NCBI GenBank assembly: GCA_031763025.1
Contig: JASSKH010000029.1
Coordinates: 4,430,862-4,494,861, forward strand
Reading direction: 5' to 3'
Length of the DNA: 64,000 bases
Source: Macrocystis pyrifera
Lineage: Eukaryota > Sar > Phaeophyceae > Laminariales > Laminariaceae
A program made the position numbers and the translations under genes. Below the pieces are notes generated by a model that was not told the DNA's origin, did no database searches, and saw nothing but the letters and a program-made list of their open reading frames with translations. Below, in pieces: positions 18,755-58,700 of the stretch (its first letter is position 1; each line of letters opens with the position of its first letter).

Positions 18755-18924
18755 GAAACGCGGGCGTATTTATATCTACACACCTATATATGCGCTTCAT
18801 ATTGGGTATGCGCCCGCGCGCCGCCGAATCCTGAACCCCTCCATAAAATCTTTAATGCAATATATGCAAGCAAGGTAATGAGCGTCCAACTGTTGGAGGT
18901 ATCTTTAATCGAAGTAGGAACAGC

Positions 18925-18989
18925 GCTCCGTCTCGAAAGGGATGCGTGGTCAATGGTCAAATCACTAAGGCAAGTAACAAATGAGTACG

Positions 18990-19020
<31 letters not shown>

Positions 19021-19083
19021 CTTCGTCTCGAGAGGGATGCATGGTCAATGGTCAAATGACTACGACAAGCAACAAGTGAGTAC

Positions 19084-19113
<30 letters not shown>
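18925..19113 (+). repeat. Two tandem second-type SINE-like copies with poly-C tails
   Basis: Each copy reads CGTCTCGAAAGGGATGCGTG, GTCAATGGTCAAAT, CAAG-AACAA-TGAGTACG and then C(n): 18988-19019 and 19085-19113. The second tail lies 26 bp before the acceptor of exon 1 of the CH/HEAT gene. Confidence 0.8.
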
Positions 19114-19114
<1 letters not shown>

Positions 19115-19139
19115 GCTCCCCCGTTTCGTGCGCCAAAAG

Positions 19140-19235
19140 ATGGGACTGTCAGATTTGACGACGGCCGAGGAAGTGAACGCCATCATCCTGGCGGAAGATG
19201 GGGCCGTTGTCACCTTCGTCAACCGCGCGTACGAG
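19140..19235 (+). CDS. CH/HEAT gene exon 1 (first found)
   Basis: Thirty-two codons from MGLSDLTTAEEV to FVNRAYE, phase 0 at the end, donor GAG|GTGAGC. The acceptor CCAAAAG| is modest, but a 29-C tract sits just upstream at 19085-19113. The ATG may be an internal Met rather than the start, because the CH domain should begin about 80-100 residues earlier. The pattern resembles the last helices of a CH_2 domain. Confidence 0.65.
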
Positions 19236-36563: not shown

Positions 36564-39500
36564 AGGGCCATCGGAGCCCAGTGCTCGGGCAGGGAGCCCT
36601 CAACGGCCTTCCATCTGTTCTGCGACTTCTCGCTGCCTAGGCTTGCCCCGGCTCTCGCCGTCAACCCGGCAAAGCGACGGTCGATTCTGGTCATTTTCTA
36701 CGCGTTCGTTGGCGGCGGCGGACACACCCGCGTTCAGGTGTGGTACGTACGTAGTAGAGGTGTGGGGGTACACAGCACCACTATTACGGGGGTCCATAGT
36801 TAATGGGACCAAATTTTGTTAGTGAAAATAGTTAAATATATTGGTTTTTATGTACTCCATAGGTCCTATTAACTATGAACCCCCGTATTATGTAGCCTAC
36901 ATGTATCGACACGTGACTGCCGTATAACGCGCGCGCGAACAGCGCACCCCATTGGGGTAAATTATCACCCTCCCCCACGGACGAAATTTAGCACACCCCC
37001 TCGAAAAAAATCAGAAAACCGTATTCTCCCTTAAAACACGACGGGACGGCAACAGAGCGAACGAAAAGGGGTGGTGGCTTTTGGAAATAACTATACAAAA
37101 CGAGAGAGGTGGCTTTGGGAACGATCTCGTAAAAAAAATCCATCATAGACGCCAGCAACGCTCGGCGTTTTGCACTCCCCATTGCCATGTAAACCCTTTT
37201 GGAAGGAATTTTTCCGAAGGGCTGTGCTGTGTTTTGCGCGCTACACGGTAGTAGTAGCAGTAGTAGTAGTAGTAGTAGCAGTAGTAGTAGCAGTAGTAGT
37301 AGTAGGAGCAGCAGTAGTTGGCACCAGTTCGATTTGCCTTGAGGTATGAGTTGCCCCACGCAGGCAGCGCGGGTCGACCGCGCGTGACAGGGCCGTGCGC
37401 GCATGGTCGTTACCGATGAGGTATATTATATACCGTAAAGGGGGTTGAGTTCGCACAAGCAGGGGTGCGATCGTTCTCAGTGCTCGGTTTCTCTCCGCGA
37501 CGGCAAAGGTGCTACAGCAGTCGTACCAGATAGAGATCATATTATATCAAGGCCCTCTACGAGATATTTCCGTTAAAACATTTTTTTTTTGGTATGACTA
37601 TTTGACAACTTTCCCGTCCTGGGAAAAATCGAGCGCTGTGAAAAGCGATCGCAGCCCCCACCCCTGTGCGGACTCGACGCGTCTTGAGGTACTCGTGCGT
37701 GATGTGATGAATACCATTATACCCCACAAAATATCAATCTGGACGGGAATTTTATACGAACCTAAGGACCAAGCGACCCTTATATTTCCGCCCAGAGCGA
37801 GATATAGTACAGCAGCAGTTAATCGAAACGGTTCTATAAAAAATCGGTACGTATTAGCACCATCGAGGTTTGAGCGAGCAGCGAGGACGAGGTTTACTGT
37901 AGAGGGGTTGGCATTCTCGCCTGCTTTTGTACAACTCCCTCTCACGGCGGCCCATACGCAGTACTCAGGACCCTATGGTTACCTACCATATTTGCTTATG
38001 ACACCTATTGGTACCATCGAGGTGCGAGTGAGCATCGAGGACGAGGTTTCCTGTAGAGGGGTTAGCGTTTTCGCCTTCCTTTGTACGCTTCCTCCTACGA
38101 GGGCGTATACGTAGTACTCATAACCCACCATGGAACCGAAAAAAAACCACATATCCCCCCTGTGCTTACCTACCGGATTTGATTGTGCTTTTCTGTGTTC
38201 CCCCGTGTAGTGGTTAGCAGAATTATTGTCGTCTGTCGAAACATCTAGAAGTTTAAGGACGAGCGTGCGGACGACAAATTAGTAGGGCGCCAGGAAAGGG
38301 TAGAAGATCGATTCTTCGCCTTTCTTCATTCTGTGCACTCCTCCGCCTGCCCGCGTGGCACCCCCATTTTTGCGACCCGTTTCCTCCCTCGCCCCGCTTC
38401 CACAAGGCAATCAAGAGGATGCAAGAAACTCTGCCCGATGGCGACGCCTTCCTGAGCTCGCTGGCGTCCCTAGCGCACCTAGAAGGGGAGGTGAGTTTGT
38501 GGGAACGTAAATATCAATCGAGAGGTACTTCTTGACTTCCTGTGACGGTAACGTCATGAGTTCTGGGAGTGCACCTTGAGAGATTTCCTATTTCTATCGC
38601 TTTGCCAATGCTGCTTAAGCTCGACTGTTACGTGTGGCCTAAATAGTCAGAACCCACGATAGACCCAAACAAAAACGTACTCGCCCCCTTCGTGTATACG
38701 CCATCTTTGGGTTTCGTTACTACGGTCCCCCGGTGATAGTGGTACCCAGCGCATGACTCGTCTGTGTCACCTGACCGCTCTCACAGGCTACGATAGCGCT
38801 ATAACACTTTTCGGCTAAACCATTTTGTAAATGTCGGGGGCTGCTCAACCCAAAATCGTCGGAATCCCTTTCATTTAAAAAAAAAAAAAGCAAAATGTTG
38901 TGTGTACCTACTACGGTACGAAGGTCATGGGATTGTTCATCGGTCTGTATTTTCGTATTTATCTCAAAATCGGTTTCTGGGGATCGCCGGGATACAAAAC
39001 TCCTCAAGCGAGGAACCTCAGAAACAGGACGGTGCACCTCTACCCGAGCATGTGTCCTCTGCCTCTGTTATCTATGGGAGCGTTTTTGTAGATCAGAGGA
39101 ATACCGAAACGCCTTCACCGGAAGAAGATGTCGGTGTAACGCTTTGGCGTCGTTTGGAAGTACATTCAATTCGAGTTTTCCTAAACGTTTCCCACCCCTA
39201 ACCCCTGGCCCCCGTCGTGGGCAACGCGCATAAACACCTTTGCCCCCATTCCCTCGCACCATACGAGGAGGATAGTCCCGCCGCGTATCGTAGCCAATGG
39301 GGTCCGCTGAGAGAATTGCTGCAACCTCGACAACATCCTCTACATGCTGCCATTCCAACCCCATCCCCTCGTTAAAATATCTGAAGAAAATGCGCCCAGA
39401 TGTTGGGGGTGTCTCTAGTAGGAGTAGGAATGGTGCTCCGTCTCGAAAGGGGTGCGTGGGAAATGATCTAGTGACCGAGGCAAGCAACACATGAGTGCTC

Positions 39501-42500
39501 ACCCCGTCCCATAGCAGGATGCAGTCCACCCTTCATGCGACTCGCCCAACACCTCACGCTTTGCTTCCCAAAGCTTGGTGCAAGCACTGTCTGTCTGGTC
39601 GGTGAAAACCCGACGTGCTCCGTCCCGGCGTTGTAGGGATGCGAGGGTCTATGGTAATACTACTGCGGCCATGGATGACATGAATACCCCCCCCCACCCC
39701 CCTCATCATATACCCCTATCGTGTATCCCCGCCACGCGCGTTCCATCACCATCCCCGTTTTCCCCGCGGGCCCTCGACCCACACCAACGGCATCACAGTT
39801 TTCCGGCGCGTTGATGGACATTTACCTCCACTACTGCTCGGTGGGCTTGAAGTCTCCGTCAACGGCCGTGCGCGCCGCCTGCGTCGGGATGCTCGGGCCA
39901 CTGCTGCCCCGATCCCCGGAATCCACGGGGGCGTTTCTGTCGACCATGTCACGGATGGCCGAAGAGGTACGAACTGCTGTGGTTCTGAGAGGAAACCTTG
40001 TCGGGGTTTCGGTATTTTCGTTATGCCATCTCGACTATTACGGGGGACCATACTAAATAGGAGCTACGGTACATACAAAAACCTATATATATTCCTGTTT
40101 TTACTAACAATATTTGGTCCTATTTACTATGGTTCCCCGTAATACTACTTGCTTGTGTTGCCTTAGCATGATCTTCTTCAACCCTTTTAGGACTGCAATC
40201 TACTTTTCGAGCGACGAACCAGTCAAATTCTAAGCAGTCAGTCGCCAAAGCGGGACTGCAGTTCCAAAAGAGTTACAACCCCGTTCAGGAACCGCCTCCA
40301 TCTCTTTAGGGGGGAGAAATCACTCGGAAGGTTCGTGTTGGAAAAATTTGCAGCAGTCATACCAGGGTCACTAGGCGCGAAAATGCATAACTGATACATG
40401 CTGCGTATATACCGCTCATATATGATATTCCCGTACGAAGCAGCGGTTGGGGGCATTGTGTAATAGCACTACTGCTGCCGTAGGACCGGGTGTGGATGTC
40501 TCATTGGAAAAGTGTGTGTGTCAACGTTTCGAGGTTGCAGGTATAGCATTGTTTGGCGTTATTTTTAAAGAAGATCAAGCTACGTACGACCCTAGCCAAC
40601 GTTATCTAAAAAACGTCGTGGTCTGTAGACGACCGATTCGTACTTGGTACGACATAGGCGCTTCGAACGTCACGACCTCCCTCTCGTACGTGCTATTAAT
40701 ATTCGGGAATGCTTATGGAGGTCAACGTTGAAGCTCGTGCTGCACGTTGTTGGACGACAAACGCTAATAACACCTATAATGATTGATGAGAAATGGTCAG
40801 AGCTGTGCTCAGGGTAGAGTACCAAAACGTTCTCTTAAGAGAGAAAGGGAGAAAGAGAGAGAGAGAGATAGAGAGAGGCAGAGAGTGAGAAAGAGAGGGT
40901 GACACCACGCCCCCCAAGTCACCGCACCTGTAGCCTCTGCCTGACCCACCGATGCTGCGTTTTATTTGCATATGCCACTGGACAGGACTCCTCCTGGGAG
41001 GTGCACGCGCAGTTGGTGGTGGCGGCGTGCGCCGTTCTCGAGGCTTCGCTGGGGACTGATCAGCTTAACGATCAGAAGAACGCGGCCCTGTCCATTATCT
41101 CGGTAAATATGACGGCCCTGTCCTTTTTCTCGGGAGGCATGGCCGGTTCTGTTCATTATCTCGGTTTTGATGGCTGGTCCTGTCCTTTTTCTCGGCAAAT
41201 ACGGCGGTCCAGTCCATTATGTGGGCACATATGGCGGTCCTGTCCATTATCTCGGTAACTAAGGGCCACTCCTAACGAACGAAAAAAAACCACGATTCGT
41301 GAGATTTTTGTCGTGAATCGTGATTTTTTTGTCGTGAATCACGACAAAAAAAATCGCGATTCATGACGCCATTTTTTTTAGCTTTTCCCTAAAAAAAACA
41401 AAATCACGATTCGCGACATTTGTCGTGTCTCAAAATACACCTGATCAAGGCAATACGCAACCCACGTGCACAAACGGTATCCGATGGTCGGCATAGGGAC
41501 ATGACAGACTCTGCTTCGTAGGCCGCTTGTGGACAACGGGCGGCTACCCAAAGACACCGCTGGGCGCGGGCTAACGAGGAGGTTGTGGCCTCGAAATTTC
41601 CAGGAGGAAGAGCCACTCCTGGAAGACAAACGCGAAAATGACCTGGGGATATCACAGGACAGGCCGGGCAGACGGCCTGCGAGATGGAATCTCGCTAAAC
41701 GAGCTTGGCCGACGGCCGGTGAAGTTGGAATCTCGCAGGCTGGGTCAGGCTTCGGCCCGCGATTCGAATATGTCACGGGCTGGGCGAGGTGCGGACGGCC
41801 CAGCCCGGCCTGGCCGTGCCCCACTCTCGAGAGTTTGCTCCACACCCCCCCAAAAACGTTGGGTTTGAAATATAAGAACTTTAACTATTTGAAAATATCA
41901 CGAAACGCGACGTTTTTCGGCTTTTTTCGTTAGAACTGAAATGTCACGGATCGTGATCTTTCGGCATGCCTAAAAATCACGAACCGTGATTTTTTTTTGG
42001 TTCGTTAGGAATGGCCCTAAGGCGATGCTGTCCATTATCGTGATAAATATGGCGGTCCGGTCCAATATCTGTGAACGTATGGAGTTCCTGTCCATTATTT
42101 TGATAAGCATGGCCGGTCCTGTCCACTATCTCGGTTAACACGGTGGTCTTGTCCGTTTTCTCGTCAAATATGGCGGTCCTGTCCGTTTTCTCGGCAAATT
42201 CGGCGGTCCTGTCAATTGTCTCGATGAGCGTGGCTGGTCCTGTCAATTATCTCGATAAGCGTGGCTGGTCCTGTTCATCATGTCGGTTGTTATGGCCGGT
42301 CTTGTCCAAGATCTCGGTAAATATGGCCGGTCCTGTCCATTTTCTTGGTGACTGTGGCGGTCCTGTCAATTTTCCCGGTGAATACGACTGTTCTGTCAGT
42401 TTTCTCATCAAATATGGCTGGTCCTATCCATTGCATCCGTAACAATGCCGGTCCTGTCGATATATTTCGGTAAGCATGGCTGGTCCTGTCCATTATCTCA

Positions 42501-45500
42501 GTTAATAACGCGACCGCGGCTCTCCTGCAGTAGATCACACGGTAGTAGCACTTAAGAAGTCGTGAGTACTACTAGAAGACCCGTCAAGACTGGCACGGTC
42601 AGGGTTTATATGGTGCAACACAAGCACGGGCGCCTGCGCGGGGCGTATCGCTCGCCCGTGTTATTGCTGCGGACCTGTTTTCCGTTAGCCTTGCGGGAGG
42701 GCTTCTGATTTATCGCTATCATTAATACGACTGAAAATGCTGTAGTCCGCAGAGGGACATGTATATCTCATATCTGCTTCTCTGCCTGCAACATCGAACC
42801 CTCACGTGCCAATGCTTTTATTCTTAAATTTATTTATTTTCATGTCGAACAAGGCATGCCTTCACCCGGCCGCGCCGCCCGAAGTTTGCAAGATTGGACT
42901 CTCCGCCGTGGCCCCCGTCCTCTCCGCGTCCGCGTCGACGCTGTCACCTATTTTCCTGTCGGTGCTGGTCTCCCTCGCCCCTGCCGACCGGAAAGCAATG
43001 CTGGGTGAGATGGTTGTTCCCTTTTACCATTACCGTAAAGAGAGTTTTTTTTTCAGCACTACGTTTTTCCGGAACGGGAAGAAAATCCGGAAAAAAAAAA
43101 AACTTTAGCTCCTGCCGACGGCGCCACTTGTTAAATTCAAGGTCGGGACACTTTGTATCCCTGGTTAGGTTAGCCTATTGAGCAGATACTCGTTGGGACT
43201 CACGTGCGATGTTTGCCTAGAGATGGAAGAAGACCAGCTTTATTCCTTTCGTGCACGACGAGATACGGAGAACAAGGCTCGTGCCTCGCTGGGAAAAAAA
43301 AAAAACTGGTTTTCCAACTAAGATACGCCTCCCAAAGTATTACACATACGATCCCAGTGCCTGAACCCAGGTGATTCCCGGCCCATCAGCCACATTCCAG
43401 GCAGTGCCATAAGACACCCTTGTTTACCGTTTTCGAGAGAAAACGAGCGCACAATAGAAAAAAAAAAAAAAAAAAAACCTAACTCAACCCTCTTCACGGT
43501 AGAACGGGGGGACACATTATACGAGTATCAGAACCAAACGCGGTGTGTAGACACACGGGATTTTCTGTTTTTTTTCCCTCTGCAGAACCAAGTTTGGCGG
43601 GTAAACCTGCGGGGATCTATGGTTTCTGGCACCGTCGTGGATTCTGATAACCCAATGTAATACTTATCACGAGCTAAAAAACGACTTTTTTATTTCCACG
43701 GCGTAATATATACATACATACACATATATGAGTGTACACATAAATATGTATGTATGTGTATATGTACATATATATATGCATAATATGCATATATACATAT
43801 ATACAATATACATATCAATATGCATACATATGCATATATATGTAGATATGCATGTATGTGTGTATATGTATACATATGTACATACATATATACACTTACA
43901 CATATATATAGATGTATATACTTATATGCATCTATATTATGCATACATATATATCTATGTATATATGTATAAATGCATATATAGCCGGCGTCCCCGGTGG
44001 CTTGGTAGGTGATCCGCGTGCCTATCAAGTCTCACCGAGTGCATGCTCGTAGGAACTTTTTCTTGCATCAAAAATTGATTAGCGGAAAGCGCGAGAACGT
44101 GAGTTAGCTACATCCGATGAAAATCGACGAACAGTGGGAATGCTGAACCCTATGCGCGACAAAAAATAAAAAGCACGTACCGGGGGGGAGAAGGGACGAC
44201 ACCTACCTGTGACCACGGCTTGTCCAGAAGATTGCTGAGGGTAAAACCTCCTACGAGTTAGGCTGGAAAGTAAAAGTGATGATTAAGAAATATATATATA
44301 TATATACGAGTATGCATACACGTATATATGATTGCATATATGCTTGTACGTATATCTCAGTCGGTCTGTCTGCCAAGAGCTAGCAAGTGACAACGACCTC
44401 AAAAATCGTAATTATATTTGTATTTATATATGTATATACCTGGTACGTGTGTATTACTGTCTATATGTATGTGTGCATATACATTATATACATCCATATA
44501 TACGTCATAAATGTATATATACATACATACATGTGTATATATACATATATCATATATATGTACATGTATATGTGGAAGCCAGGGTCGGAGATACCTATCG
44601 TAGATCTCGAAACACGAACGCGCGGAAGGACACTTCACCGGTCAAGCAATATCAAATCTCGGGGTCGCGAGCGCTCTCACGTCATTGACGGTGTTGATCA
44701 GTCCCCGGGAGATAGCTATCGGGACATTATTTCGCCACAAGACTCCGGGGGGACGAAAAGTCCTCCCCACCGAGTCAAGACTAGGTCTAGCATCTCCTTG
44801 CTAAATATCAACGAAGAACTCTGCTCGGTTTATTATGTCGGCCGTAACGACGGCTACAAGGGACCCTAGGTGGCGACCTCACCACGGCGACTTCTCCCCG
44901 ACTTCTACACTGCGACGTCTCCGCGATTACATCAGTACGAATGACGAGCACAGAATCTACATATATACGCATGTACATCTATACATGTATACATATATAC
45001 ATATATATAAATAAAAATAGGGACCTGCACTACAACCCGATTATCGTGGTAAGGGAATGGAATGCAGGTACCACTATTGGAACTGGAGGAAGGCAGTTTT
45101 TTCTTGTTCAGTAGGCTTCTTGTGTTGTCGCTTCATCATGACGAGAGAAGGGATCTATTGAGAGAGTGAATCGATAGGAGCTTGATTCAAGGTATCAAGC
45201 CCACTCTGCTCTCCTTCTATCAACCCGCTGGACGGGTAAAGACACTTGTCCGGGGAACTTTCCTCGGGCGCATGCGTACTCTTCTCCTATCGGCTATTAC
45301 TATTGTACTTCAAAGGAAACTTCAGAGCCCCTGGAATACTCTTAGGGTTTCCAGGGCTTTGATACTACGGGCTGTATCATAAACACTTCTATAGCCCGAT
45401 ACTATACCATATCACATTAGCCCACCCTGAATAGTCGTATATGCAGACCACACGACTGTAAAAAGATGATACCGGAATCATCCGAAAAGACCGGAAAAGG

Positions 45501-48500
45501 AAGTCGAAGATTCGGCTATTCGGAACAACGTAATGAGGCTATATATTTCCCCACACCTTGTAGTGAGGCCTAGGCGAGCTACGTATAAGAGCTACCGTCT
45601 ACGAATGAAGCCAATAGGAAACCGGAGAGTGCCTCGCTCTCGATGCTACGTTAATGCTGTACGCCTGCGCTGCTAATAAAGTCCTCTAACTACGAAGAAA
45701 AGAAAGAAAGGAATAAAAAAGTGACTATCTGGCCGATAGGTGTCTCATATTAAAACCCGCTGAACAGGAGAGGCTGCGCTCCAAAGCTCAGATGTCACTT
45801 GCGTCGACGTCAAGGGTAGTATAGTCCGATTACCGCGGTAAGGGAATGGAATGCAGGTACTACTATTGGAAGTGGCCTGGAAGGCAGCTTCTTCTCTTGT
45901 TCAGTAGACTTCTTGTGTTGTCGCATTATTCCTTATAATGACGAGAGAGGGGAGCTGTTGAGAGAGTGAATCGCTAGGGGCTTGGTCCAAGGCACCAAGC
46001 TCACTCTGCTCTCCTTCTATCAACCCGCTGGAAGGGTGAAGACACTTGTCCGAGGAACTTTCCTCGGGCGCATGTCTACTCTTCTCCTATCGGCTATCCT
46101 AACCATCGTACTGCAAAGGAAACTTCAGAGCCCCGGGAATGTTCTTAGGGTACTCAGGGCTTTGATACTACGGGCTGTATCATAACCACTTATATAGTCC
46201 GATACTATACCATACCGCAGACCCCATTGCGTGTTAGTTGCCTGGAGCGTCCGCCTGCACATGCGCCGTGCCAGCGTGCACAAGATTTACGGCAGTAGTA
46301 TTCTGCTCCGTGAGTTTCTTACACACAGATGATACCGTTTATCTATAGCATGCTGCCTTTTTCGCAAAAAACTAAACTAAACCCGGTTCCCAGCTTCAAG
46401 TGTCGTTGTTTCGCTCCTTGAGCGTGGAAAAACAGCAGGGAAAGGGTCCCCACTACGTTGGACAGATCGGACAGATGATATCCCCACCTCATGATCTACA
46501 GTGCACCTGATATATACATATGCGACGATCTGTTACGGGGGACCATAGTAAATAGGATCGAATATTGTTAGTAAAATGGGGAAATGTGTCGGTTTTTGTC
46601 TGTAACGTAGGTCCTATTTATCGTGCCCCCCCCCGTAATATATATCTCCATATCTGATGTTGCCGATTGGGGGCCGTAAAACCTGCGCGCGTGATCGGGG
46701 ATATTTTTCCAGTGGGGTCGAATCTGTGTAGTGCAGATCCTGCACAAGATCTTGTCATATCGCCAGGGTTCGGGATGTAGATGATCTACTGTAATACTAT
46801 TAACATCTGCGGGTCGTGATATTTGCCGCGTTTGAATCGATCGTATGGTTCCTTTGGGGCAATCAGACAAACAAAAACAACCGCGTCACACCCCGGACAG
46901 GTTATGATCTATCTATCTATCTACTGTAGATCATCTACTCCCTCGCCAGCCTTAGTGAGAGATTTTGCAGGGTATGTGTAGGACAGATCCCAACCAGGGA
47001 ACATGTGCTACTACTGTAGATGGTGCAGAGTATACGGAGCCTACCTGGCAACACGAGCCACCACCACTGCTGTAGATCATACACGACCGGGAATAGATCT
47101 ATTGTACTTTGAAAGGTCTACTAATGGTACATCATCCAACGGTAGGCGATGCTCCGTCCGACGTTTCTTTTGTTTTGGTTTTTGTGCCCCAGAGAGCGAG
47201 AGGAAACCCCTGTCCACACTTATTTATCTAGTTTTCGTGTACCGGTTCGAACCCGGCTCGTTTCTTCCATCATATTCGTCGGGCCTGTCTCTGACGGTCA
47301 TCAAAGGATGGTTTGCTCCGAGGATGAAGACGCCTGAGTAGTATTATCTCTCCCGACTCTGGTAGTGTAGGAGTTGAACCCACGGCAGGCAAAGCCTCTC
47401 AATAGTCTCCCCAGCTTGGCTCAGTGCACGAGTCACCCTACCCATCTGGGCGTCGGTCCGCAGATCTGTCCAAGGTGTTCAAAAGTATCACACACATAAA
47501 CGACGAATATACAGCAGCACGTACGTGCTGTAGCAGCGTCGACCAAATTGAGCATGCAGAGAAGCTGGGACAGATTTGGGCGTGTCCCCGTGTGCAGCGT
47601 ACCGCTCTGTGCCTAAACAAAAGGAGCGTTTGTATTCTAACATCAAATTTCTATTTTCCTAGTATTTAAGGACAGAGTGGTTTACTGCACTGGTATATAG
47701 CGGTGAGACGTTGCGACGGGCGCGCAGTGTGCGATTTTACGGCCGTGGTACGTACGCGCTGTCCCTGTATATAAGATACATGACGCGACAGCGGCTAAGA
47801 ATCTCATGCTTTGGCTATGCGCAGGGCTCACGCAGGGCTCACGACTTTTTTTTTGGTGTCGAGCACAGACTAGGCTCTTGACCTTTCTAGGAGGGCAGTC
47901 CCGTTCGAGGACGAACCGCTTGCATTTCAAGTAATTTGTCCCCCAAACGGGACAGCAGTCCTAAAAGGGCTGCTAAAGGCTTACCAGGAATTATATGTAG
48001 TACTTACTTGGAGCAGAGTCTCGCTGGGCACGAATGGTTTACCTGAGAATTATTGATGCGTGCATGGCGGGTGTCCACGTCAACCTCGTCGCAGCACGGG
48101 CATCTTACTGCCACATGCTCCTCTATCCCCATGAAGCGTCTTCCTATGTCCACGAACTCTGCTGCGGGTATGACACGAAGTGAGTCCGTTGGCATCGCCC
48201 GAAGGCATGGCGCGGCTCCTGCCCCCTGTAGATTCCTATAGAAAACCTTGGCGAAAGACTTGGTCCCGGTCCCACCCAGCGGGTCGCCCGGTCCGGGCGG
48301 GCGCGCTGTCTCCGGTAGCTCTTCCAACGAAGCAGCGTGGGCAGCGTGCCGACCTTGGTCCACTATCTTGCCCTACTTCTATTGGGCATTACGCGAATTG
48401 GAGGTTACGACGCCGTGCGCTGCCAGCGTGTCGGGCTCTGGGGATCTAGGAGCCAGGTCCCCCTCTGCGCCTAGACTCCATCCAGCCAAGATTCGGGGAC

Positions 48501-51500
48501 GATGCCCGCCATCGCTTCCTCCGTCACTCCCCATGTGTCTCGTATCTCCCGCAGGCTGCCTCCCAGCTGAGCAATCACGCTCGCTTCCGGGAGCCCCCTC
48601 CTCAGTTTATCTCCAAAAGGGTCTGTGAGGTCTGCTAGAACCTCCGGCAAGATCCCCCCCCTGCTCCCCATGAAGGCCGACATTCTCCTCGCTTCTGTCG
48701 ATGGCAGCCCTAACCCCCCCGCTCCCGTAGAAAGGCGTGCTTGGGCTTGCTGGTAGGGTTTGAAGGTCAGCCGATTACCCGGGCACCCCTCCGGGAAGAA
48801 CGACTGTGCCTCCGCCGCTCCCGGTAGCTCAAGGATTTACTCGTATGCCCACTGCGCCCCTTTGTTTGCCCTTCTGCATACTTCGAGGGACAGCCCTGGG
48901 TCGAGAGCCCTTTCGAGGTAGCTCGTCCGTTGCCCGAGAGATTCGACGGCTATGAGGGCCGCTGCTTGTTTATCGGGCTTAGCGAGGCAGCGCGCAAGGC
49001 GGTCCGCCCCCTCATCCCTCACTACCTCCATTGCTCGCCCCCGTACGTATTCCTTCGTGCCGATCGGGACACCCACCACCGTCACCCCTCCTTTGTCTGC
49101 GATGAGGACCTCAACGCTTTCCTGGAGCGAAAACTCCTCCGCCATCGGGGCGTGCCCTTTGGGTGATAGTGCCACTGTTTCGGCGGCGTTGACCACAATA
49201 CCGATGCCATCGAGCTCTCGCCGGAGGAAGGCAAATGCTCTAACTGTGTCGGCTGTGATGCCCGCAAGGCAGAGAGAATACTCCTCCGTATACGCGAAGC
49301 CTTCCGCACCTTCTCCTTCGAATTCCTGTCGGAATCGCTTCAACCCCGGTCGCAACGCCAGGCAGAACATTGCTGGTCCCATGGGATCCGCTTGCTAGAC
49401 ACCGCTGGATCAAGCGGTCGTCCTGGTCTCCTCTGAGTCCATCCGGGAAAAGATGTCAACTGGTCTTGTGCCGTAGTACTTGGCCACTAACGGCGTGAGC
49501 ACTGGCATGCAGTTTGGCACCTCTTTCACCGCCGTCCTTTTTACGGTGTTGAAGGCGTTGGAGAAGTTTGTGAGAATGAACCAGTTGTCCGTCTCGTGTA
49601 GCGTCCTAGCCCTCAATCCCACATGCTCCACTCCTCCGGGTACGGCGACCCCACAACTGTCTCACCTCTCGGTTTACCTCCTCCAATCGCGGCCGCCACT
49701 ACAGTCTGTCGCATAGCCCGTGCGGTGATGAGCCTCCACCATGTCATGGCCATGCAAACCGGCCGGTCCTTTTCCCCCAACGGAGTGAGGCTTGACTGTA
49801 GGAAGAGCTGCTAGAACTCTGGCGGGAACGGGTCAGGCTCGTCGACGATTCTCCGCCAGAAGGTTGTTGTACCCCTTCCGAACTCCTCTCTGCCAATGTC
49901 GATGTGAATGATGGATTATAGGAGAGAAACTCGTTGACCGTCGCTTCCACGGCCTGAGAGGGCGCTTCGGGAGCTGGTGACATCGAAGAGCACCTCGGAG
50001 GCGTACTCATCGCCAGGGCGCCACGGGGGGGCATTTCCATCTTCCACCTAGGTAGCGCTCGCCAGCACTGCAGCACCGCCGTGGTCTTTGGGGAGGAACT
50101 TGGCCGCCAATGTGTTCCACGTCTCCTCGTTCCCCTCTGATCGTGGTTCTGCCAAAAGGTTGGATGCTGCCACTTTGACCCCTCCCGCGTGGGGACACGC
50201 CGACGACGCTCGTTCAAGCTTCGCCTCGTCCGAAGCTTCCTGGGCGGCATCCCGTTGTCTCAAGTCCCCTCTCCTGGTATACGCTATCAGCCACGGGAGA
50301 AGGAGCACTGCGTGCCCGCTCTCCATCAGCGCGAACCTCTGTCGCCTCTTGATCCGGCCGTCCGGTGAGTGGAGCAGGGCTGGCATGAGGTACCATAACT
50401 TTATCGCCCGCAGGACCGAGTTCGGCGTCGCCGAGCCCTGGTTCGGCCGGTGCTCCCCCATAGCGTGGTTGAGGGTGCCAAGGATGTGAACGCTCAGGCA
50501 CGCGTGTGCTCCCGCCAGCTGCGGCTGCACGTTTTTCCCAGTTGCGAAACGTTGCCCCAGATCATCAAAGGAAATTGCTTCGAGTGGTGGCCCTATGCCC
50601 AGGCTGTTCTGATCCCATCCGTATGGATGTCTCCTGCGAAGGTGGCCCTTAGTCGCTGGTGGGGGCGCTCCGGAACCCCTAAAAATGTATCGACCGAGGT
50701 ACGTACACACCTGGTATGTAGCAACAGAGAATTTTCCGACCATCATCATCATCAAAGCATCAATCATTTTTCTCCTCCCCCCACCCTTGTCGTGATGCTT
50801 TTATCTTTTTTCACGACAGCAACGATGGCCGACAAGACGCGACCTTTCGCGAGCCCCCGAGGGAACGATCGCCTCCGGATCGAGACTCAGGTTTGGCGAT
50901 GGCGGACGTTCTTTTTTTTTTATTCCGTCGTATAAGCAATTGCTCATTTTAACAAACAGTAGTTATTCCCCACCCCAAAAAGAAGCATAGCTCTGCACGG
51001 CAAGGGTGAGATGCTTTTCAGAAGTTTTTGATCAGGTACGGAGAGAGCTATTGCGGGGGGGGCATACTCTTACGTTGTATTCAGAACCCACATCGTACCC
51101 AAAACTGAGGTATCCTCCCTATGTTATCACACATAATTCGGTTCTGGTTGCTGTTACCCCTATAGATATATCGGAAAACCTATTAATTCGATTCGGTGCC
51201 CGGGTCAATACCTGAACGCCGGATTTGGTTCGTTTTGCCCAGTCGCCGCGGTTCATGAAGCCACGCTGGCCGATAATATTATAAACATTTGATATACAGT
51301 GAGAATATCGAATGGGAGTTACATTCACGGCCAGAGGGGGGTAAGGGGTAAGGACGAGAGCGCGCTCCCGTGTGGGTGGTTGTTGTCGTCATCGTTCAAT
51401 CGACGGTTACATCGACCATACTGCCAACCATCGCAGCAGAGGGGTTAGACTCCACATTAACTTGTAGGAGCGCCCCTGTGTTCACGTAAAAAACTGTTTT

Positions 51501-55700: not shown

Positions 55701-58700
55701 CCCCCGCCAACTGGCGATCGGGGTTTGATCTTCTGGGCGGGGAGGAGAACCTTTACTTCGCGCATGGGGAACGATCTATCACGGAGTGTTTATGGTACGG
55801 CAGTTACATAGTACCCCCATTGCTGTCTCTGGAAGTGGCCACACCGGAAAATAAAATAACTCATTGAAGCAGTCCTCCATACACAAGTCCACCTCACTAG
55901 CGGTTCTTAGTACGATGCAGCTCACCCTTCATGCGACTCGACGAGCACCTGACGGCGCTGCTCGCTTGGTGCAAGCAATGCCCGCCTGGTCGGTGAAAAC
56001 CCGACGTCTTCCGTCCCGGCATTGTAGGGATGCGAGGGTCTATGGTCATACGACTACGGCCATCCATGATATCGATTACAACCCCTTCCCACCCCCCCTA
56101 CCCTCTTATTAGCTACTTATTCGACAGTGTAGTCTTACATTTAGCTGCAGTAGGAGTTTGCCGAAGGGGTGGACCGTGGTACCGAACGAGTTTGAACAGA
56201 TCAAGACCAGCCAGAACCACAAACAAACCAACCGCTGAGAAATATCGACGTACTGCATGCTACGTGGACGGGTCGGGGTACTTTTTTCAAAAGTCTCGCG
56301 GGTGACGCCATGTCTCGATGGTGTTTTTTTTCCGTAGCCCGGAGTCGCACGTCCGAGGACGACGAACTCCGATAAGGGACGAGCAAATAGCCCACCCTTA
56401 TGCCGTGTTTTTCTTGCTCGATACCGATTGTTTGCGTGTTTCTCTCGTCGTTTCATCGCCGTTCAATCGCGGGCGGCCGCAGTGGGTGGAGATTTTCGAA
56501 GGGCTTGGGCACCACGTTTTCAGCGCCCTGTGCTACTCGGACAGCGTGGAGTCCGGGCTGGAGGTGCTGACGAGCTTCGTGCAGGGCTCGCAGCTCCGGG
56601 ATGCCGCCCTGAGGTACGTACGCGAGCCTATGCACCTTTGCAACAAATCCAGACCGGGAACAGATGTACCACTCTCACTCCCTCTCTCGGAATTTAAAGG
56701 ACAGGTCGTTGATTCATGTTGCTACAGGGGGCCGCAATAATTAGAACCGACGATGGGCCTTCAAAAACGTCGATTCCAATGTATTTAACAACCATTTTTG
56801 GTTCTGATTATTACTCTCCCCCGTAACAGTCATTACATGCCCCCGTAAGTTTCCGGACACATTTGGTTGTTTTTTTTATCCCATTTACTGTCTTCGCCCC
56901 TCTGTTATCTCTCTCGTTCCTAGTTGTGACTCAGGTCTGGGGTCACAAAGCAGGCTCTCCTCCTTCCCCCCACCATGGTCCTTGCCATACAGTTTTTTAT
57001 CCCGAGAAGACTTCAGCCCTTTCTTCCCTCGTCGGTTCTCGTCGAAGTGCGCCTACCCACGCTACTATTACGGGGGTACATAGTTAACAGGACCTATGGT
57101 GTACATAAAAACCTATATATTTGCCTATTTTTACTAACAAAATTTGGTCCCGTTAACTATGGACCCCCGTAATAGGCGCTCCCAGCGGTTGGTTGATCCC
57201 ATTTTTCATCTATTTTGTTTCTGAATAAACTCAAGCGCTCGACCCGCGGAGGATTAGAGCTCCAAGCATCAACTTTTAGCGGCATCCGAGGGTACCACTA
57301 GCCCGCCGGGGGCGACCGACTTCTTTGTGGGGATTTTTGCGCTTGCATGGCGAAGGCTGGTTGTGTCTTGGCGGCGAATGTCTCACTCATCTGACGGATC
57401 AGACAGATAGACCCCTCTTTCATTGTTTGCGCAACGTTCCGCGAAGGGGAGCAGATCCCTGATTTTGTCTGATCTGGACGATCTACTGCTGTAGCTGCAG
57501 CTCGAGGTTTGGTCGGGTGCAATCTGTGTGTAACGTCTCGTGTGCGCCCCGTGTGTTTACCGATACGGTTGATCTGTACCGTGCGGCGCTTGCGAAAACG
57601 CCATCATGACGGCAAAAGTATATAGGACCTACTGTAGTTTTTTTTTTTCAATCCTCCCGCTAGACAGTCCTTAATCGTGGGCTGAAATCAAGTCTAAGTT
57701 CTTTTTTTCTAATGCGGCATTTCGTCTCCCGGTTTGCGTTCGAGAAAACCTAGAACCAAAAGCGAATAAACGCACCGCATCATGCACAAGTGACGCAGCA
57801 GCAGGCGACTAAATCACTCTCCCAATACATCTTCGCCGTTTTATTTCGTAATTTCGCGTGGTTAACTTCGTAGTCTCTCGAGTGTCGGACTTCCGTGTGG
57901 GAAGGTACTCGGTGCTACGAGTACCTCCTGATCGTAATGGCCAATAGGCGGAGGTTCGCGGTCGTGGGTTTCGCAAACTGCGTGGGCCGCAGAGCTAGTT
58001 GGACAGCAGTTCGACGGCGGGTAACAGATGTGGTACAAACTCCATTTCCTGCCAGCGTGGGACAGATTCCATGTAGTTGGTGCTGCTCACCCCCTGCAGG
58101 CGCATCCCGAATCATTTTCGGCCAGCACTGGCAGAAAGTATAGTGGTGCTTCTCCCCCACGCAGGTGGTCGGGACCCCCCTCCCCCCCCTTGCACAATGT
58201 GGGCGTATAAACCTCCTTGTGGACATATCGCACAATGTCAAGTAGCAAACTCCACAAGGTGTCACCAACCTCTCAGTTCAGTTGTGTTCCACATTGTTCA
58301 TAGTCTTCACGAGATTTGTTTTGCGCCCACATCATGCCAGGGGGGGGGGGGGGGTAGGAGGGGTCCCGGCCACCTGCGCAGTAATAGAGGCGCGCTCCAT
58401 ACGCTGCACTGTCACAATATACAATCTACCGCAGTTTATCACCACGCATGCACCTCCACCCTCCAACCTACGCTAGATGTCGCAGTTCTTTTTCCTACGG
58501 CATACGTCGGCGTATCACATGGGAACGGTTGCGTTCGAGACACGTGCTACAATAGTAGAAGTAGCTCTTATTCGGCTAAACTGTCACCGGGACTGACCGG
58601 AATGCCGAAACGTGTGTTTTACTCTATTTTTCGTGACACATCGGGTCCAACCATTTGGTTTTTTCTCAGGATCAGTTTTTTGGGGTGAGGTTATTGGACT

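What the first reader, a model, noticed from the sequence alone, without database searches (positions are those of the whole stretch)
41079..42512. A minisatellite built from an exon end and its 5' splice site
The first 30-bp unit spans the last codons of exon 10 and its donor (CTCG|GTAAAT), and about 21 further units fill the intron. About ten keep GT at the same place, and one (near 42470, TTCG|GTAAGC) looks stronger than the true donor. Units are about 30 bp, so decoy donors in the first block would add about 10 codons each. The array may buffer or diversify splicing.
Basis: partly seen in the sequence, partly recalled or inferred. Interest (0 to 1): 0.8.

Follow-up and report, generated by a model that had tools for sequence, protein, structure and literature searches.

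The report
Minisatellite copied from an exon end
An old repeat array appears to have grown out of the last 21 bases of a predicted exon and its splice signal, but its copies have decayed so far that none looks able to add an intact piece of protein, so it is most likely a harmless relic of a kind already described in human genes.

Summary
A 30/31-bp minisatellite of 22 units (41082-42509) begins inside a predicted exon. Unit 1 is the last 21 coding bases plus the first 9 intron bases and matches the array consensus at 29 of 30 positions. Ten of the 21 downstream units keep GT, and the one at 42470 scores above the predicted donor.

The functional reading is not supported. The two GT sites of the first block add 61 and 152 nt, both frameshifts. 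The eight later ones read into a TAA at 41256. Sites as strong as the predicted donor are about as dense in the array as elsewhere: 3 in 648 bp against 244 in 62,532 bp. Donor columns +1 to +6 are the most eroded part of the unit: 65% against 86% retention.

Best reading: a relic of tandem duplication across an exon/donor boundary, mostly disarmed. The kind is known (ABCA7 intron 18 VNTR; IFI6). No transcripts, orthologues or organism name were available, so splicing is untested.

The parts
40986..41102 (+).
   Evidence: Acceptor cag|GAC, donor TCG|GTAAAT, open frame continuous with the neighbouring predicted exons; no transcript seen
41103..41108 (+). Predicted 5' splice site (GTAAAT), a weak donor
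   Evidence: Score 1.2, U1 duplex -5.5, the weakest of the four predicted donors compared when the last is placed after 43004; the only GT in or at the end of this exon scoring above 0
41082..41262 (+). Minisatellite block 1: units 1-5 and unit 6 up to the insertion
41263..42017 (+). 755-bp element with 27-bp terminal inverted repeats (25 of 27 match), inserted in unit 6
   Evidence: leaving it and one TAA out restores a 30-bp unit in register
41260..41262 (+). Target-site duplication TAA, left copy
   Evidence: flank GTAACTAA
42018..42020 (+). Target-site duplication TAA, right copy
   Evidence: flank TAAGGCGA
42021..42509 (+). Minisatellite block 2: last base of unit 6 and units 7-22
41256..41258 (+). 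In-frame TAA met by any exon extension that passes it; lies inside the former donor of unit 6
42470..42475 (+). Strongest donor-like site of the array (GTAAGC, unit 21); extension 1367 nt, out of frame and with a premature stop
42854..43004 (+).
   Evidence: the frame runs on from the exon before it in phase 0

Best explanation
A 30-bp stretch covering the last 21 bases of an exon and the first 9 bases of its intron was duplicated in tandem and expanded to 22 units by ordinary minisatellite turnover. The first unit stayed as the working exon end and donor. The downstream copies became intron sequence and diverged by about 18% from the consensus, with one-base indels that broke the 10-codon register. 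A TIR element later jumped into unit 6. Donor copies are now about as common as chance donor-like sites, and using any of the ten that keep GT would give a frameshift or a premature stop, so the array most likely has no product-level function and sits as tolerated, occasionally noisy intron sequence. Shown by computation: the anatomy, the insertion, the frame consequences, the decoy density and the column erosion. Inferred: that the exon came first, that 41103 is the used donor, and that decoys are rarely used.
For: Unit 1 has the highest mean identity to the other units (0.787, rank 1 of 22), as expected of a constrained progenitor. Similarity stops abruptly at 41082 inside the exon. The exon part of the downstream units shows no codon periodicity (mean retention 17.7, 18.7 and 18.0 of 21 at codon positions 1-3), so they have not evolved as coding sequence. 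Of the 10 GT-keeping downstream units 0 give an intact frame into the next exon. Sites scoring at least the predicted donor: array 3 in 648 bp (4.6/kb); stretches taken as other introns (38492-39798, 39968-40985, 43006-45500) 20 in 4820 (4.2/kb); window + strand without array and element 244 in 62,532 (3.9/kb); - strand 236 in 63,961 (3.7/kb). Donor columns +1..+6 are kept in 65% against 86% for the other 24 columns (column permutation p 0.0003; rank 1 of 30 circular shifts), in both blocks and after dropping similar units (14 of 21 kept: 62% against 85%).
Against: No transcript, orthologue or second strain was available, so neither the donor at 41103 nor the non-use of decoys is shown. Three array sites (42317 equal; 42378 and 42470 higher) score at least as well as the predicted donor. 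The predicted donor is weak, so competition is conceivable. The two near decoys shift the frame but meet no stop before the end of the next exon, so what they would give further on is unknown. The gene was not identified; there is only a sub-threshold HEAT hit. The order of events (exon first) rests on identity ranking, and unit 6 ranks almost as high (0.781).
Confidence: 0.72

Rival explanations
1. The array is a set of alternative 5' splice sites that diversifies or tunes expression, through isoforms or through unproductive splicing that lowers mRNA (as reported for ABCA7, where one 25-bp unit is retained out of frame).
For: Predicted donor weaker than 42470; units 3 and 6 keep GT within 152 nt of the donor; ABCA7 precedent with a used decoy and frameshift.
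Against: No frame-preserving decoy among 10; decoy density about background; the two near decoys are not stronger than the predicted donor: unit 6 (TCG|GTAACT) scores 0.9 against 1.2, and unit 3 (TCG|GTTTTG) is below the listing limit of 0; donor columns eroded, not kept.
Confidence: 0.15
2. Selection actively disarmed the copies: units survived better when their donor was broken, leaving donor positions the most changed part of the unit. (Compatible with the best explanation, not exclusive of it.)
For: Donor +1..+6 columns lowest of 30 circular windows, permutation p 0.0003, true in both blocks. Against a null that spreads each unit's changes over the whole unit: GT 10 against 14.1 expected (P 0.049), mean donor score P 0.0022, sites at least as good as the predicted donor 3 against 6.4 expected (P 0.078).
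Against: Against a null within the 9-nt site nothing stands out: GT 10 against 10.5 expected (P 0.51), mean score P 0.16, strong sites 3 against 3.4 (P 0.55). Conservation changes broadly around the unit, highest at columns 30 and 1-11, so a conserved minisatellite core explains it as well; against circular shifts alone the rank is only 1 of 30. Column 16, outside the donor, is also low (12 of 21). Lost GT in 5 of 6 units with +5G against 6 of 15 others, P 0.15.
Confidence: 0.25
3. The minisatellite came first, as an intron repeat, and its first unit was recruited as the exon end, adding about seven codons and moving the donor.
For: The units share one consensus; unit 6 is nearly as close to the rest as unit 1; the donor is weak.
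Against: Unit 1 ranks first in identity. The joined peptide LNDQKNAALSIISACLHP is only weakly more amphipathic than its shuffles (fraction 0.13 reach it; read-through peptide 0.54), so this hardly decides.
Confidence: 0.15

Closest known systems
ABCA7 intron 18 VNTR (De Roeck et al. 2018, PMC5954066; passages seen, outline and abstract)
   Same: Tandem array of 25-bp units immediately flanking the exon, the first GT of the array being the canonical donor; 23.7 units in the reference genome; use of a donor one unit downstream retains 25 bp out of frame
   Different: There the array starts at the GT, its length varies between people and isoforms were measured; here 21 exon bases are part of the unit, units are 30/31 bp, about 18% diverged and split by a transposon-like element; no expression data
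IFI6 (6-16, G1P3) minisatellite (Turri et al. 1995; not held; known here from a passage and a reference entry in PMC4526556, and a reference entry in PMC2572611)
   Same: A minisatellite said in the paper's title to provide multiple splice donor sites
   Different: In IFI6 two downstream repeat units are used as donors and give different isoforms; here no GT-keeping unit leaves an intact frame
Intron gain by tandem genomic duplication (PMC4974935; listing and start of abstract only)
   Same: Tandem duplication in a gene as a source of intron sequence
   Different: Here an existing intron seems to have been lengthened; by eye the acceptor region printed shows no resemblance to the unit (no alignment was run)
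PIF/Harbinger-type non-autonomous element (family traits recalled, not from a call)
   Same: TIRs and a 3-bp TAA target duplication
   Different: No transposase found (one ORF tested); no other copy of its 20-nt end in the window at up to 3 mismatches

Membership tests
Donor-containing exon-flanking VNTR (ABCA7 type) | Tandem array abuts the exon and includes its canonical donor | tested here: met
   (donor predicted, not seen in RNA); ABCA7 features
Donor-containing exon-flanking VNTR (ABCA7 type) | Copy number varies between individuals | not testable with these tools
   One assembly only; the genome search gave no answer in 7 tries
Donor-containing exon-flanking VNTR (ABCA7 type) | Decoy donors used in transcripts | not testable with these tools
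   No RNA data
Multiple-donor minisatellite (IFI6 type) | Downstream units used as donors give protein isoforms | tested here: not met
   At sequence level only: 0 of 10 GT-keeping downstream units give an intact frame
PIF/Harbinger-type element | TIRs and 3-bp TWA target duplication (recalled) | tested here: met
   27-bp TIR, 25 of 27; TAA on both sides
PIF/Harbinger-type element | Transposase gene | tested here: not met
   755 bp; the longest ORF listed in it (168 aa, 41378-41884 minus) has no Pfam hit at E 0.1; fits a non-autonomous copy only

The most novel reading that the evidence does not exclude
An array born from a splice donor that records splice-site disarmament at one locus: selection has removed donor function from most of 21 copies while the exon-derived part stayed similar, perhaps because the exon-like part still binds splicing factors that hold the weak true donor in use.
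Probability: 0.15. Interest if true: 0.55.

Novelty: new member of a known kind. Interest (0 to 1): 0.3.

Why it matters
It is another case of the ABCA7/IFI6 situation, where a minisatellite contains the exon's own donor. With 21 decayed copies side by side with the presumed working donor, it is a small natural test of how donor copies decay in introns. The present data say that they have decayed to about background, which argues against reading such arrays as splicing devices by default.

Tried and rejected
Rejected: that the array is coding or was coding (31-bp units break the frame; no codon periodicity). Rejected: that 41263-42017 is diverged array (TIRs, TSD and exact register of the empty site). 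Rejected: decoy enrichment. Not decided: purging of GT (null within the site P 0.51, null over the whole unit P 0.049).

Led nowhere: identity of the gene (PDB phmmer gave only one hit each time, E 0.41 and 0.66, to a phosphoribosyltransferase; Pfam HEAT E 0.034, 14.8 bits against a cut-off of 23.5, and SCD E 0.16; I give no gene name). Relatives: predicted exons 9-11 in viral contigs, 6 pattern stretches, 0 relatives; in genome contigs, 72 stretches, 0 relatives; unit 17-mer in viral contigs, 1 hit, L001, where the 420 of 5404 bases that I read show no repeat by eye; unit 20-mer in genome contigs, 0; TIR 19-mer in viral contigs, 0. These collections hold viral and prokaryote records, so a miss says little about a eukaryote gene. 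Pfam on 10 window ORFs, 0 hits at E 0.1. Rfam at gathering scores, 0 hits. One script failed on N letters and was rerun; one paper search was turned back for a sign and rewritten. Structure prediction was not tried, because a spliced product is not read letter for letter from the window.

Full report
Setting. The window looks like eukaryote DNA with predicted exons on the + strand; the organism is not known to me (introns of 1308, 1019 and 1751 bases between the four exons modelled; many simple repeats). I modelled only the exons near the finding: 38407-38490, 39799-39966, 40986-41102 and 42854-43004; the three junctions between them are phase 0. The encoded protein looks HEAT-like, but only below threshold (Pfam HEAT, E 0.034, 14.8 bits against 23.5).

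The array. A wraparound alignment of 41079-42520, with the inserted element and one TAA left out, gives 22 full units, 41082-42509, 12 of 30 bp and 10 of 31 bp. Tandem Repeats Finder reports two blocks. Unit 1 is GCGGCCCTGTCCATTATCTCG|GTAAATATG, that is 21 exon bases and 9 intron bases, and matches the consensus at 29 of 30. The similarity begins at 41082 and does not extend further into the exon (9 of 30 upstream). I found no copy of the unit elsewhere in the window (22-mer at up to 3 mismatches; best gapless 30-mer 18 of 30). Mean divergence of the 21 downstream units from the consensus is 18%. There is no strong higher-order pattern: mean identity is 0.69-0.72 at lags 1 to 8 against 0.70 overall.

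The interruption. Between 41263 and 42017 lies a 755-bp element with terminal inverted repeats (25 of 27) and TAA on both sides. Reading across the empty site gives GCGGTCCTGTCCATTATCTCGGTAACTAAG, a 30-bp unit in exact register. The insertion is therefore younger than this part of the array. The family name PIF/Harbinger-like rests on recalled traits.

Decoy donors. Ten of 21 downstream units keep GT: units 3, 6, 10, 15, 16, 17, 18, 20, 21 and 22. Unit 16 has the same 9-mer as the predicted donor; unit 21 scores higher (3.5 against 1.2; U1 duplex -8.2 against -5.5). The consequences were computed for these ten. Units 3 and 6 extend the exon by 61 and 152 nt and shift the frame; the shifted frames meet no stop up to the end of the next exon. 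The other eight extend it by more than 1 kb and read the TAA at 41256; three of them (units 17, 18, 22) would keep the frame but for that stop. So 0 of 10 adds codons to an otherwise intact protein, contrary to the finding.

Are there more usable decoys than chance? With a cut at the predicted donor's own score, the array has 3 in 648 bp (4.6/kb). Stretches taken as other introns have 20 in 4820, the window + strand without array and element 244 in 62,532, the - strand 236 in 63,961. Two thousand mononucleotide shuffles of the array give 2.2 on average (sd 1.5; 38% reach 3). The array is not clearly enriched. The inserted element has 1 in 755 (41789, score 2.8) and the rest of the intron 0 in 344.

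Where has the unit changed? Exon-derived columns are kept in 86% and intron-derived columns in 71% of cells (60 of 441 against 55 of 189 changes; column permutation p 0.0018). The loss centres on donor positions +1 to +6: 65% against 86% (p 0.0003; lowest of 30 circular windows). It is seen in both blocks (60% against 89%; 67% against 85%) and after pruning to 14 of 21 units (62% against 85%). It is not due to base type alone: A/T columns give 0.87 in the exon part and 0.67 in the intron part (p 0.006). For a purge: against a null over the whole unit GT is low (10 against 14.1, P 0.049), mean donor score is low (P 0.0022) and strong sites are few (3 against 6.4, P 0.078). Against a targeted purge: within the 9-nt site GT is not hit more than its neighbours (P 0.51), nor is the mean score unusual (P 0.16); and conservation varies broadly around the unit, with a well-kept stretch at columns 30 and 1-11 and another low column (16) outside the donor. 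I therefore state erosion as a fact and selection as a possibility only.

Origin. Unit 1 has the highest mean identity to the others (0.787), followed by unit 6 (0.781). This fits an exon-first origin, with unit 1 held by protein and splicing constraint, but an array-first origin is not excluded without orthologues. The downstream units show no codon periodicity.

Known relatives. ABCA7 intron 18 carries a 25-bp VNTR whose first GT is the canonical donor of exon 18, with a cryptic donor one unit downstream giving an out-of-frame product (passages of PMC5954066; outline and abstract). IFI6 has a minisatellite said to provide multiple donor sites (passage and reference entry in PMC4526556; original not held). 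Literature searches that ran were made, in an open-licence library only; I make no claim that cases in other lineages are absent from print.

Verdict. The anatomy is real and neat, the interpretation as a splicing device is not supported, and the kind is known. Interest 0.3.

Noticed in passing
41263-42017: 755-bp TIR element with TAA target duplications inside the array; it carries further short inverted repeats around motifs like CACGATTCGTGA near both ends
   Followed up: partly
45170-45382 and 45970-46185: Two + strand ORFs about 800 bp apart encode nearly the same peptide (...TLLSFYQPAGRVKTLVRGTFLGRM...), so a diverged direct repeat; ungapped DNA identity of the surrounding 291 bases is 62%
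   Followed up: partly
48837-49661, minus strand: Stretch that to the eye resembles fragments of a reverse transcriptase (...FILTNFSNAFNTVKRTAV...); the two ORFs tested have no Pfam hit at E 0.1
   Followed up: partly
56524-56613: High-scoring exon candidate (ALCYSDSVESGLEVLTSFVQGSQLRDAAL) that may belong to the same HEAT-like gene; adding it to the PDB search gave nothing
   Followed up: partly
18924-19119: 95-bp tandem repeat with long C runs ending 20 bases before an exon candidate at 19140
   Followed up: no
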